Positions 1-33,136 of a DNA stretch of 42,650 nt are shown here, piece after piece. This DNA comes from an uncultured Kiritimatiellota bacterium (GTDB taxonomy: Bacteria > Verrucomicrobiota > Kiritimatiellia > RFP12 > DVOR01), in contig CALXSH010000012.1 in NCBI GenBank assembly GCA_944391065.1, positions 1 through 42,650 of the forward strand. Direction: 5' to 3'. Both the position numbers and the translations under genes were made by a program. Below the pieces are notes generated by a model. The model was not told the origin of the DNA and did no database searches. It saw nothing but the letters and a program-made list of their open reading frames with translations. Numbering within the stretch: the first letter of the stretch is position 1; each line of letters opens with the position of its first letter.

Positions 1-22
1 CCTGAAAGGACTCTCCGCCAAT

Positions 23-54
23 GAAGCTTTTTCAGCTATTGCCTAAAAAACTTC
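23..54 (-). other. Hairpin downstream of ruvA
   Basis: A 14-nt arm at 23-36 and a complementary arm at 41-54 flank a 4-nt loop, with one mismatch and G.T pairs. It lies just past the ruvA stop in the leftward direction. The stem is AT-rich and no T-run follows, so it is not a textbook terminator; it may protect the mRNA 3' end. The remainder of 1-84 shows no gene. Confidence 0.35.
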
Positions 55-84
55 ACGGTTTTGCTTGCAATCAGCCATATGTGT

Positions 85-29700: not shown

Positions 29701-31416
29701 TCAGATCCTTTCGGGCGTCGGGATGCCCAGCAGGTCCAAACCGCCGCGGAGGACCTTGGAAACCGCCGCGCAGAGGCGAATGCGGCTGTCGCGGACCGCC
29801 GGATCGGCCTTCATGACGGGAGAGCTCTGGTAGAAGGAGCTGTAGAGCTGGCTGAGCTGATAGAGGTAATCGGCCAGAACGCTGGGCTTGCAGAGGTCGC
29901 CCGCGCGCTGGACGGTATTCGGATACTGGAGCAGCCAGAGGGCCAACGCCTTCTCGACGGGCGACGCGATGGCGAGCGCGTTCTCTTCGGGCGCGCGGCC
30001 GACCTCGGCACGGTACTTCGCCAAGAGCGAATTCAGACGGGCATTGGCGTACTGCAGGTAGGGGCCGCTGTTGCCGTCAAGGGCCAGGGCGCGCTCCCAG
30101 GTGAAGACAATCATCGTGGCCGGATCGTGGGAGAGGTCGGCGTACTTGATGGCACCGATGCCGATGGCCTCTGCCAACGCCGCGCGCTCCGTCTCGTCCC
30201 AGTCGGGGTGATTCCCGTCGACAATCGTGCGGGCACGGGCCGCGGACTCGTTGAGGAGAGTCTCGAGCTTGATGACGTTGCCCTGACGGGTCGAGAAGGT
30301 CGCGTCGGGCAGACGCATCAGACCGAACCAGACATGCTGGAGCTTTGCCGTGCCGCAGAGCCCGAGCTTCTCGCAGATGCGGAAGAACTGGCGGAAGTGC
30401 AGCTGCTGGCGTTCGTCGGTCACATAAATGATGCGGGCCGGATCGAAATCGGCCACGCGGCTGCGGACGGTCGCGATGTCGGTCGTCGTATAGTTGAAGC
30501 CGCCGTCGCGCTTACGCACGATGGCCACGTCGAGGCCCTCGTCCTTCATGTCGACGATCCAGGCCCCTTCGCTCTGCGTGGCCAGACCCTTTTCGCGGAG
30601 CATATCGACCGTCTCGGCGAGCATCGGCTGATAGTAGCTTTCGCCGCGGTAGATGTCGAACTTCACCCCCAGGCGGTCATAGATACGGCCAAATTCCTTC
30701 AGTGAAATCTCAATGAAGCGCTTCCAGACGGCCAGATTCGCCTCGTCGCCGGACTGCAGCTTCACCAGCTCCTCGCGGCACCGATCGATCCATGTCGGAT
30801 TCTCGGGGTTCTTCGTCTCGTTGTAGCTCCGCACGTAGACCTTCTCCAGAAGCTCAACCGTCAGGTCGGCGCGTTCCTCGTCGGTCAGGAAATGGCGGTA
30901 GCCCATGATGAGAATGCCGAACTGTGTGCCCCAGTCGCCCAAGTGGTTGTCCGCAATCACGCGGTAACCCAGCGCGCGCAAGATGCGGTCGATGGCATTG
31001 CCGATGACCGTGGAGCGGATATGGCCGATGTGCATCGGCTTGGCGACGTTCGGCGAGGAATAGTCAATCACGACCGTCTCGTGGGCCTCACGCTGCGGAA
31101 TGCCGAGCGTTTCGTCGGAGACCAGCGCCTCGACACCCTTCGCTACGGCGGCGTCGGAAAGTTTCAGATTGATGAAGCCGGGACCGGCCACCTCGGCCTT
31201 CTCCAGCAGACCGGGCAGCGGCTGTGCCGCGATCACCGCCTGCGCCAGCTCGCGCGGATTCTTCCCCGCACGCTTGGCGATGCCCATCGCGTCGTTGCAC
31301 TGCCAGTCGCCGAAGCGCGGATCCTTCGAAGGCACGATACGGCCGCCGCCGCACCCCGGGACAACCTTCTCAAACGCTTCCGCAAGCCATGCCTTCACGA
31401 TGCCTTCGCAATCCAT
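29701..31416 (-). CDS. argS: Arginyl-tRNA synthetase
   Basis: This 571-residue class I synthetase charges tRNA-Arg. The HIGH signature lies at 129-132 in SSPNVAKPMHIGHIRST. The second catalytic loop reads FSTRQGNVIKL in place of KMSKS, as is common in ArgS. The N-terminal ArgS-specific tRNA-binding region (about 1-100) and the C-terminal DALR anticodon-binding domain (about 450-571, LQYANARLNSLLAKY) are both present. It heads the leftward argS-exbB-exbD-ftsK-rodZ-like cluster. AAGGAG lies 11 nt before the ATG, and a sigma-70-type promoter is visible at 31462-31490. Confidence 0.96.
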   Translation of the reverse strand: MDCEGIVKAWLAEAFEKVVPGCGGGRIVPSKDPRFGDWQCNDAMGIAKRAGKNPRELAQAVIAAQPLPGLLEKAEVAGPGFINLKLSDAAVAKGVEALVSDETLGIPQREAHETVVIDYSSPNVAKPMHIGHIRSTVIGNAIDRILRALGYRVIADNHLGDWGTQFGILIMGYRHFLTDEERADLTVELLEKVYVRSYNETKNPENPTWIDRCREELVKLQSGDEANLAVWKRFIEISLKEFGRIYDRLGVKFDIYRGESYYQPMLAETVDMLREKGLATQSEGAWIVDMKDEGLDVAIVRKRDGGFNYTTTDIATVRSRVADFDPARIIYVTDERQQLHFRQFFRICEKLGLCGTAKLQHVWFGLMRLPDATFSTRQGNVIKLETLLNESAARARTIVDGNHPDWDETERAALAEAIGIGAIKYADLSHDPATMIVFTWERALALDGNSGPYLQYANARLNSLLAKYRAEVGRAPEENALAIASPVEKALALWLLQYPNTVQRAGDLCKPSVLADYLYQLSQLYSSFYQSSPVMKADPAVRDSRIRLCAAVSKVLRGGLDLLGIPTPERI

Positions 31417-31510: not shown

Positions 31511-31618
31511 ATGTGTCATAGTCATGTGCACCGAAGGGTATCATGGTTTCCTCCCCATGTGTCAAAAGAATGTGCACCGAAGGTACGCCTCGTTCGGTGC
31601 ACTTTTCATTTGACACAT
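31511..31618. repeat. Composite repeat: two direct copies and one inverted copy
   Basis: A bipartite element ATGTGTCA-N5-ATGTGCACCGAAGG occurs at 31511-31537 and again, with only the N5 changed, at 31557-31583. The two copies start exactly 46 bp apart. An inverted copy lies at 31593-31618 (TTCGGTGCAC, 8 nt, TGACACAT). Copy 2 and the inverted copy can form a hairpin with a 10-bp stem (GTGCACCGAA/TTCGGTGCAC) and T-rich tracts on both outer sides. It lies between the argS promoter and the palindrome array. It could be a set of operator sites, a bidirectional terminator or attenuator, or the remnant of a small mobile element. Confidence 0.8.
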
Positions 31619-32008
31619 TACGCGGGTTTTCTCCCGGCAGAGGCCCGTATCCGACCCCGAAACTTCCCAAAACAGATTCATGACCCTATAGGGTGACAGC
31701 GCATCACCCTATAGGGTCATGACGTACCACCCTATAGGGTGATCAAGGATTACCCTATAGGGTCACGGATCCGTTTTGGCCTCTATTCCAGTGGGAAGTC
31801 ATCCATGTCCCGGTCAGAAGCAGCTCCTGCTCCGAAACTTTCACTCTCCGGCCGCCCACGGTCGCGGCCAAAGACGCCGCCGACCTCCCGCCGGTCCCGA
31901 ACCGTCAGCCCTTCGGGAAAAAGAAAAGCACGGCGGGTTTCCCTTTTCCCTTTCTTTTGGTAAATTAGCGCCAGTGTCCACCCAGATTAAAACGAAAGGA
32001 TGACTTTT
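31619..32008. other. Non-coding part of the divergent argS/kinase intergenic region
   Basis: The full gap between argS and the first kinase gene is 592 nt (31417-32008). Apart from the argS promoter and the repeats listed separately, the stretch from 31764 to 32008 shows no convincing gene. It contains a pyrimidine-rich tract at about 31939-31959 next to a TAAATT (31961-31966) that could be a -10 for the rightward operon. GAAAGGA at 31994-32000 serves as ribosome-binding site for the first kinase. Short open frames here have no recognisable similarity. Confidence 0.5.
31683..31763. repeat. Array of four 12-bp palindromes with exact 23-bp period
   Basis: The perfect palindrome ACCCTATAGGGT occurs at 31683-31694, 31706-31717, 31729-31740 and 31752-31763. 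Every start-to-start distance is 23 bp, with three unrelated 11-bp spacers. Flanking bases of copies 1 and 2 make them 16-bp reverse complements of each other (TGA..TGA-type against TCA..TCA-type edges). Conservation of the palindrome and of the spacing, but not of the spacers, is what repeated binding sites for a dimeric protein look like. It lies 246 nt upstream of the kinase-kinase-nagB operon and about 270 nt upstream of argS. No regulator gene lies next to it. Confidence 0.95.
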
Positions 32009-33136
32009 ATGGCGGAACTCGGTAAGGCCACGCAGGCGGAACTCAAGGCGATTTCCAACGCGTTTCAGGTTTACGGTGATTTTGTCTCCGGTTGCCCTCA
32101 CGGCAGCGGTCATATCAATGACACCTACAAGGTGACTTATTCCGTCGGCGGCGCCCCGCTGAGCTATCTGCTTCAGCGTATCAACCACCACGTCTTTACC
32201 CAACCGGCCAACGTGCAGCAGAACATTCTGCGCGTAACCCGCCACATCGCCTCCAAGCTGATTGCGAAGGGCGAATCCGATATCTCCCGCCGCACTCTGA
32301 CGCTGATCCTGACGCGCGACGGCGAGCCTGTCTATCATGACGCCGAGGGCAACTGGTGGCGTATGTACATCTTCGTCGAGGGCGCCTCGACCTACGACCA
32401 GATTCAGAGCACCGCTCAGGCCGAACTCGTCGGCGAGGCTTTCGCGGACTTCCAGAACATGGTCGCCGACCTGACCGAGCCCCGTCTTCACGAGACGATC
32501 CCCCACTTCCACAATACCGTCAAGCGCTATGAGGCCCTCCAGGCCGCCATCCAGAAGGATGCTTTCAACCGCGCCAAGGACGTCAAGGCCGAAATTGATT
32601 TCGTCACGGCCCGCGCCGACACCTTCGGCCGTCTGCTTGAGCGTTCCGCCAAGGGCGAAATCCCTGAGCGCGTGACCCACAATGACACGAAGCTCAACAA
32701 CGTCATGCTCGACGACAAGACCGGCAAGGGTATCTGCGTGATTGACCTCGACACGGTCATGCCCGGTCTGGCGCTCTATGACTTCGGCGATATGTGTCGC
32801 ACCTCCACGGCCAACGCGGCCGAGGATGAGCAGGACCTCTCCAAGGTCTACTCCCGCATGGATATGTTCGAGGCGCTTGCCACCGGTTACTGCCGCGGCG
32901 CAAAGTTTCTCACCCAGGGCGAAAAGGAAGAGCTCGCCTTCTCCGCCCGTCTGATCACGATGACAATCGGCATCCGCTTCCTCACGGACTATCTCTCCGG
33001 CGATGTCTACTTCCACATCAAGCGTCCGCAGCACAATGTCGATCGCTGCCGCACGCAGCTCAAGATGGTCAAGAGCATGGAAGATCAGGCCGAGCAGATG
33101 GAGGTCATCGTCCGCAAGGCCCTGGCCGCCGAGTAA
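32009..33136 (+). CDS. NahK/AmgK-like amino-sugar 1-kinase, copy 1
   Basis: The 375-residue protein belongs to the aminoglycoside-phosphotransferase fold and resembles N-acetylhexosamine 1-kinases. It has SGHINDTYKVTY in the ATP-binding lobe, YLLQRINHHVF, the catalytic loop THNDTKLNN (D226) and the metal site VIDLDTVMPG (D248), then YDFGDMCRT. NahK phosphorylates GlcNAc or GalNAc at C1; AmgK does the same for MurNAc or GlcNAc in wall recycling. Which sugar is used here is unknown. It is cytoplasmic. It opens the only rightward protein operon, with a paralogue and nagB following. The start at 32009 is preferred to 32000 because GAAAGGA lies 8 nt before it. Confidence 0.85.
   Translation: MAELGKATQAELKAISNAFQVYGDFVSGCPHGSGHINDTYKVTYSVGGAPLSYLLQRINHHVFTQPANVQQNILRVTRHIASKLIAKGESDISRRTLTLILTRDGEPVYHDAEGNWWRMYIFVEGASTYDQIQSTAQAELVGEAFADFQNMVADLTEPRLHETIPHFHNTVKRYEALQAAIQKDAFNRAKDVKAEIDFVTARADTFGRLLERSAKGEIPERVTHNDTKLNNVMLDDKTGKGICVIDLDTVMPGLALYDFGDMCRTSTANAAEDEQDLSKVYSRMDMFEALATGYCRGAKFLTQGEKEELAFSARLITMTIGIRFLTDYLSGDVYFHIKRPQHNVDRCRTQLKMVKSMEDQAEQMEVIVRKALAAE

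What the first reader, a model, noticed from the sequence alone, without database searches (positions are those of the whole stretch)
31683..31763. Four identical 12-bp palindromes at an exact 23-bp period upstream of an amino-sugar kinase operon
ACCCTATAGGGT occurs four times without mismatch, at 23-bp steps, while the 11-bp spacers are unrelated. Selection on both sequence and spacing is implied, which suggests cooperative binding of a dimeric protein (operator or iteron-like array). Twenty-three bp is just over two helical turns, so successive sites would wind gradually around the helix. No regulator gene adjoins it and I do not recognise the motif. It sits between divergent operons and could control either, or mark a locus for another chromosomal process.
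Basis: partly seen in the sequence, partly recalled or inferred. Interest (0 to 1): 0.8.

Follow-up and report, generated by a model that had tools for sequence, protein, structure and literature searches.

The report
Four-site arrays paired with HU-like proteins
The four evenly spaced palindromes are one of about 17 near-identical landing strips scattered through this bacterium's genome, and the genes for four related HU-type DNA-binding proteins each carry such a strip, in differing letter codes, at the same place in front of their promoter, which suggests a protein-specific chromosome addressing system that I do not know to have been described.

Summary
In detail: ACCCTATAGGGT x4, period 23 bp, at 31683-31763. 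It is one of about 17 dispersed, intergenic four-unit arrays in the 1.96 Mb genome (41 exact 12-mers, 0 reversed controls). In six arrays with unrelated flanks all 24 palindromes are identical while the 11-bp spacers are near random, so sequence and spacing are both under selection. Inverted arms make the whole module symmetric.

Neighbouring genes differ from array to array and argS orthologues in congeners lack it, so it is not an operator of argS or the amino-sugar genes.

The decisive clue lies outside the window. The genome has four genes of one HU-HIG subfamily (HU domain plus conserved C-terminal region). Each has a four-unit, 23-bp palindromic array ending 38-39 bp before a -10 hexamer and 143-148 bp before the ATG; the codes are ACCCTATAGGGT, a relative of it, GGGCTATAGCCG and CATACCGGTATG. 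No dispersed array examined has that promoter.

Best reading: a dispersed binding array for an HU-HIG protein that also controls its own gene. Binding is inferred, not shown. Two congeners carry many TATA/23-bp arrays without an HU-HIG gene beside them. The nearest described element is the BrickBuilt minisatellite.

The parts
31683..31694 (.). palindrome unit 1, ACCCTATAGGGT
   Evidence: exact match; same 12-mer in about 17 arrays of the genome
31706..31717 (.). palindrome unit 2, ACCCTATAGGGT
   Evidence: exact match
31729..31740 (.). palindrome unit 3, ACCCTATAGGGT
   Evidence: exact match
31752..31763 (.). palindrome unit 4, ACCCTATAGGGT
   Evidence: exact match; TRF finds the 23-bp array 31679-31763
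31653..31682 (.). left arm: GAC at -30..-28 and CCAAAACAGATTCATG next to the array, inverted relative to the right arm
   Evidence: mirror complementarity at fixed positions across arrays, with paired changes in L020 and L021
31764..31793 (.). right arm: CACGGATCCGTTTTGG next to the array, mirror of the left arm
   Evidence: sequence
29701..31416 (-). argS, arginyl-tRNA synthetase; neighbour, probably not a target
   Evidence: Pfam tRNA-synt_1d, DALR_1, Arg_tRNA_synt_N; orthologues in congeners lack the array
32000..33136 (+). APH-fold sugar-kinase-like gene; neighbour, probably not a target
   Evidence: Pfam APH; no -10-like hexamer at the HU-gene distance on either side of this array

Best explanation
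The array is a dispersed, high-affinity binding array for a dimeric HU-type protein of the HU-HIG kind (HU domain plus a conserved C-terminal region, Ig-like by analogy with HU-DUF4469 proteins), most likely the paralogue encoded on contig C10, which carries the same 4 x ACCCTATAGGGT array in front of its own promoter. Four dimers would sit on 18-bp dyads tiled every 23 bp; half-sites then alternate at about 11 and 12 bp, close to one per helical turn, so the protein could coat or bend 90-140 bp as one cooperative complex. The promoter-linked copy would let the protein regulate its own level. The dispersed copies, this one included, would serve a chromosome-level role (bending, bridging, marking) rather than act as operators of argS or the kinase genes. 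At least three palindrome codes front the different paralogues, so protein and array appear to diversify together. Shown: arrays, constraint, dispersal, identical promoter architecture at all four HU-HIG genes. Inferred: binding, paralogue specificity, autoregulation, chromosome-level role.
For: All four members of the own HU-HIG subfamily have a four-unit 23-bp palindromic array ending 38-39 bp before a -10 hexamer (TAGAAT, TAAAAT, TATAAT, TAGAAT) and 143-148 bp before the ATG. Two of the four (C24, C16) were found after the hypothesis was formed; rough chance about 4e-4 for those two, 2e-7 for four. The code differs by paralogue, and the two most similar paralogues (C10, C73, 50% identical) have the most similar code. 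None of 13 other family-1 arrays has a -10-like hexamer at that place. 24 of 24 palindromes invariant among unrelated flanks, all spacers 11 bp. Dyad extends to 18 bp. HU domain by Pfam, NCBIfam and similarity to solved IHF-beta and HU, with the beta-arm motif GR[FL][AD]P. The third code also recurs away from its gene (C2:751 and 797). Two Bacteroidota 23-bp arrays adjoin HU + DUF4469 genes (L070, L079).
Against: No binding data. G003 and G006 have far more TATA/23-bp arrays, and the HU-HIG genes found there are another subfamily without arrays. HU proteins usually bind with little sequence specificity, so perfect conservation of 12 bp would be unusual for them (general knowledge). Group A arrays are copies of a larger repeat block, so mobility explains part of the dispersal. 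The gene-chance estimate assumes about 1,700 genes and a hand count of arrays.
Confidence: 0.6

Rival explanations
1. A BrickBuilt-like minisatellite or MITE: a dispersed repeat spread by a transposase acting in trans, with the 23-bp period kept because units arose by tandem duplication, and without a host function.
For: Group A arrays share 400-880 bp of flank at 80-88% identity; excess of arrays near contig ends; absent from most congeners; in G003/G006 arrays change fast and can shrink from five units to one and favour 3' ends of genes; BrickBuilt has a 23-nt unit, 19 intergenic copies and copy-number change.
Against: Group B palindromes are invariant while spacers and flanks are near random; no spacer length change in 45; exactly four units in every own array read in full; fixed promoter geometry at four paralogous genes with different palindrome sequences; no clean target-site duplication found.
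Confidence: 0.22
2. A classical multi-site operator of some other dimeric transcription regulator that controls the neighbouring genes (here argS and/or the kinase operon), the regulator lying elsewhere.
For: Own arrays are never clearly convergent and usually lie upstream of at least one gene; palindromic, cooperative-looking sites.
Against: Neighbours share no pathway and distances to starts vary from about 150 to over 400 bp; no promoter at a fixed offset except at the HU-HIG genes; not conserved at argS in congeners.
Confidence: 0.1
3. A single-stranded or RNA element: the palindromes act as hairpins in a transcript or in ssDNA (terminator, processing site, REP-like).
For: The region folds far better than shuffles on either strand (z = -9.95 and -8.21); module-wide inverted symmetry.
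Against: Any array of palindromes folds well; spacers 1 and 3 do not pair; locus-specific pairing of the arms is strong in only 2 of 15 arrays; mismatches inside palindromes are not wobble-like; no Rfam match in the ten array loci searched.
Confidence: 0.06

Closest known systems
BrickBuilt minisatellite/MITE of Porphyromonas gingivalis (PMC4596501)
   Same: 23-nt unit, about 19 copies per genome, always intergenic, roughly half of the unit conserved and half variable, flanking leader and tail, species-restricted
   Different: Here four units in every own array against 1-23; the conserved half is a perfect TATA-centred palindrome; spacers within one array are unrelated; no IS5-like terminal repeats identified in the own genome; a copy sits at a fixed place before four HU-HIG promoters
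IHF/HU family binding sites
   Same: candidate binder has an HU domain with the beta-arm motif kept
   Different: IHF sites are single, about 30 bp and asymmetric, HU is nearly non-specific (general knowledge); these are perfect palindromes in phased arrays
HU-HIG / HU-DUF4469 proteins expanded in Bacteroidetes (Pfam PF18291, PF14848, PF14734; Burroughs et al. 2017 from memory, not read)
   Same: same domain family and a C-terminal domain after HU
   Different: no DNA target known to me for that group; here each gene has its own array
Dispersed chromosome-organising sites (parS-ParB, matS-MatP)
   Same: short palindromes scattered on the chromosome and bound, as inferred here, by one dimeric protein
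   Different: those are single sites conserved across a clade; here four-unit arrays with a fast-changing code and several codes in one genome
REP/BIME elements and CRISPR arrays
   Same: intergenic short palindromes; identical palindromic repeats with unrelated equal-length spacers
   Different: phased at 23 bp with constant number of four; spacers of 11 bp are far too short for CRISPR and arrays are spread over about 17 loci

Membership tests
BrickBuilt-type MITE/minisatellite | tandem 23-nt unit at many intergenic loci | tested here: met
BrickBuilt-type MITE/minisatellite | BrickBuilt unit sequence (AGAYCATARTATCCTCTCRTRTG) | tested here: not met
   own unit is ACCCTATAGGGT-N11; paper consensus
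BrickBuilt-type MITE/minisatellite | terminal inverted repeats and target-site duplication marking a mobile element | tested here: inconclusive
   inverted arms exist; no clean duplication in G003/G006 comparison; own empty sites not available
BrickBuilt-type MITE/minisatellite | variable unit number between copies | tested here: not met
   four units in every own array read in full, one decayed array aside; but 3-7 units in G003/G006/G005
HU-HIG protein with cognate array | HU domain in the encoded neighbour | tested here: met
   PF18291 above cut-off for C10, C73, C16 and below it for C24; all four align over their whole length
HU-HIG protein with cognate array | array at constant distance from the promoter of each paralogue | tested here: met
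HU-HIG protein with cognate array | protein binds the array | not testable with these tools
   needs EMSA, footprinting or DAP-seq
HU-HIG protein with cognate array | same association in congeners | tested here: not met
   HU-HIG genes of congeners are another subfamily and none has a 23-bp array upstream
structured RNA family | match to an Rfam family | tested here: not met
   only tRNAs in ten array loci
conserved operator of argS or kinase operon | array upstream of the orthologue in related species | tested here: not met
   none upstream of argS in 14 congeners, two of them with under 260 bp of sequence

The most novel reading that the evidence does not exclude
HU-type proteins with a C-terminal domain have become sequence-specific, and paralogues have their own palindrome codes written as four-unit, 23-bp arrays at their own promoters and at dispersed chromosomal loci: a protein-specific chromosome address system whose code is rewritten quickly within a genus, with related TATA/23-bp arrays in congeners and in Bacteroidota.
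Probability: 0.45. Interest if true: 0.85.

Novelty: new variant of a known kind. Interest (0 to 1): 0.76.

Why it matters
HU-HIG proteins are numerous in some gut bacteria (general knowledge), and I know of no established DNA target for them. Four paralogues with arrays at the same promoter position give directly testable targets, a natural specificity experiment (swap codes between paralogues), and a possible explanation for 23-bp repeats, BrickBuilt included, that are filed as minisatellites or MITEs. If true, an HU-type protein has moved from general packaging to addressable chromosome marking.

Tried and rejected
Operator of argS or the kinase genes: contexts vary, argS orthologues lack it. 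Structured RNA: Rfam negative, spacers do not pair. Phage or plasmid origin: the pattern is absent from viral contigs, the protein from phages, plasmids and viral contigs. Arrays with other palindromes in 800 kb of two congeners: none, consistent with no TATA/23 match in those genomes. G003/G006 empty-site comparison for element ends: intergenic regions differ wholesale, no clean target duplication. Covariation of the triplets next to the palindromes: not significant within either group. Even spacing along the chromosome: P = 0.057, not claimed. HU-HIG genes of congeners: no 23-bp array; L236, L241 and L248 show other short repeats that do not fit. Literature searches for HU-HIG or 23-bp palindromic arrays gave nothing beyond BrickBuilt; Burroughs et al. 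2017 is not held.

Full report
OBSERVATION. The four ACCCTATAGGGT copies lie exactly where stated, at 23-bp steps, and are the only copies in the window within two mismatches (0.28 expected; 0 of 100 shuffles reach four). The spacers are unrelated. The array lies between argS (-) and two APH-fold kinase-like genes plus nagB (+).

GENOME-WIDE. The own genome (G000, 1.96 Mb, 79 contigs, 94% complete; window = C12) has 41 exact 12-mers against 0 for the reversed control (52 against 3 with one mismatch). They fall into about 17 arrays, no two on one contig. Every array read in full has four units at 23 bp; one (C26) is decayed. Eight are perfect (C1, C2, C3, C4, C5, C10, C12, C13). The rest carry variants, several of them compensated so that the site stays a palindrome (ACCATATATGGT).

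Group A (C4, C13, C18, C24, C27, C37, C66) shares 400-880 bp of flank at about 80-88% identity, so these are copies of one larger block. Group B (window, C1, C2, C3, C5, C10) shares little outside the module, yet all 24 palindromes are identical while the 18 spacers average 39% identity. All 45 spacers in the 15 arrays examined are 11 bp. Neutral decay of copies cannot give this, so selection on sequence and spacing is well supported. Six arrays lie within about 400 bp of a contig end, which points to repeats near them.

ANATOMY. Outside each 12-mer, group B keeps purine/pyrimidine symmetry (left R 23/24, Y 22/24, Y 18/24; right R 20/24, R 23/24, Y 22/24), so the dyad is about 18 bp, leaving 5 bp between dyads. 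The array is flanked by inverted arms with matched positions 28-30 and 7-8 bp from the array and paired changes in L020 and L021. A 23-bp unit is thus TATA(4) + arm(7) + N5 + arm(7), and half-sites recur every 11-12 bp, close to one per turn. An RNA role is unlikely: no Rfam match, spacers do not pair, and strong folding (z = -9.95, -8.21) is what any such array gives.

CONTEXT. Neighbours of the dispersed arrays are diverse: fusA, gyrA, a tRNA cluster, aldolase, glutamine synthetase III, trigger factor, argS (gene calls are rough). argS orthologues of 14 congeners have no such array upstream (two with under 260 bp of sequence). The two-palindrome pattern is in 1 of 388 genomes sampled from the phylum. 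The exact 12-mer occurs in two other species of the genus, G006 (10) and G003 (4), there inside arrays of 14-16-bp near-palindromes GACC..CTATAG..GGTC, again at 23 bp. Searching TATA-N19-TATA-N19-TATA gives 212 matches in G003, 173 in G006, 10 in G005, 63 in the own genome (control 13), one AT-rich match in G002 and none in the other 12. Orthologous G003/G006 arrays change faster than their flanks, and one has five units in one species and one in the other.

FURTHER CODES IN THE OWN GENOME. The same search shows a second code, GGGCTATAGCC with asymmetric neighbours (C3 twice, C22, C23, C24, C30, C43; variant on C5), and less regular ones on C15 and C41.

THE PARTNER. The genes next to two arrays (C10, C73) encode paralogous proteins with an HU domain (PF18291 HU-HIG, PF00216) and a conserved C-terminal region. 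A family search found five hits in the own genome. Four are one subfamily. When the two not yet seen were fetched, C24 had four units of the second code and C16 four units of a third, CATACCGGTATG (the third unit CGTACCAGTATG), at 23 bp. In all four the last unit ends 38-39 bp before a -10 hexamer (TAGAAT, TAAAAT, TATAAT, TAGAAT) and 143-148 bp before the ATG (the C73 hexamer was read by eye from that output and). None of 13 other family-1 arrays examined has such a hexamer there. The fifth hit (C6), below the Pfam cut-off, has no TATA in the stretch fetched. The third code recurs on C2 (751 and 797, 46 bp apart). With about 29 arrays and an assumed 1,700 genes, four of four has P about 2e-7; counting only the two found after the hypothesis, about 4e-4 (rough). 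C10 and C73, 50% identical, have the most similar codes. The beta-arm region equivalent to IHF GRNP reads GR[FL][AD]P.

MECHANISM. I take the array to be a cooperative binding site for four HU-HIG dimers, the promoter copy giving self-regulation (its place just upstream of -35 would suit activation or upstream repression) and the dispersed copies serving a chromosome-level role such as bending, bridging or marking. Shown: sequence, constraint, dispersal, promoter architecture. Inferred: binding, specificity of each paralogue, autoregulation, bridging.

LIMITS. No binding data. Two of four associations were seen before the hypothesis. In G003 and G006, which have most arrays, the HU-HIG genes found are another subfamily without arrays, so either another protein binds there or the link is particular to this species. 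In Bacteroidota, where a scan found 18 stretches with two such palindromes at 23 bp (mostly Bacteroidota, one Myxococcales), two adjoin the 3' end of HU-DNA_bdg + DUF4469 genes (L070, L079); such genes are common there (general knowledge), so this is weak.

KNOWN RELATIVES. BrickBuilt of P. gingivalis is the nearest described element (23-nt unit, 19 intergenic copies); it differs in unit sequence, unit number and IS5-like ends. A purely selfish minisatellite is the main rival and may explain how group A and the congeners' arrays spread, but not the constant promoter geometry at four paralogues with different codes.

Noticed in passing
own genome C3:2031, C3:31764, C5:34059, C22:31382, C23:29065, C24:27606, C30:18458, C43:17269: Second family of 23-bp arrays with core GGCTATAGCC, asymmetric neighbours and 5-bp variable spacers; only the C24 copy (before an HU-HIG gene) was read in context.
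   Followed up: partly
own genome C15:35955 and C41:1019: Less regular TATA/23-bp arrays with varied palindromes around the spacer (TATATGGGT...ACCCATATA); no partner gene known.
   Followed up: no
L024:82-159 and about 20 further places: A second dispersed repeat with a hairpin AAATGCGCCTA...TAGGCGCATTT followed by CGGATGGCGAGTGACGG, REP-like, often within a few hundred bases of group A arrays or at contig ends.
   Followed up: partly
window 1-77; also C24, C59, C73, C52, C28: A 75-77-bp sequence identical at several contig ends, probably the assembly overlap with a longer collapsed repeat.
   Followed up: no
window 31558-31619: Long imperfect inverted repeat TGTGTCAAAAGAATGTGCACCGAA...TTCGGTGCACTTTTCATTTGACACA upstream of argS, with a partial extra copy at about 31512-31540.
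   Followed up: no
G003 and G006, e.g. L134, L139, L143, L149, L158: Large numbers of TATA/23-bp arrays of 3-7 units, often capped by TTAA-centred units and placed at 3' ends of genes next to terminators; the binder is unknown.
   Followed up: partly
L144 (G003) and L133 (G006): Orthologous locus where the array has five units in one species and one in the other, with the loss bounded by the palindromes.
   Followed up: partly
L064, L067, L069, L074, L075, L076, L080: Bacteroidota 23-bp arrays of ACCTTATAAGGT or ACCCTATAGGGT-like palindromes in gut bacteria; 18 stretches found against roughly 0.5 expected by my own estimate.
   Followed up: partly
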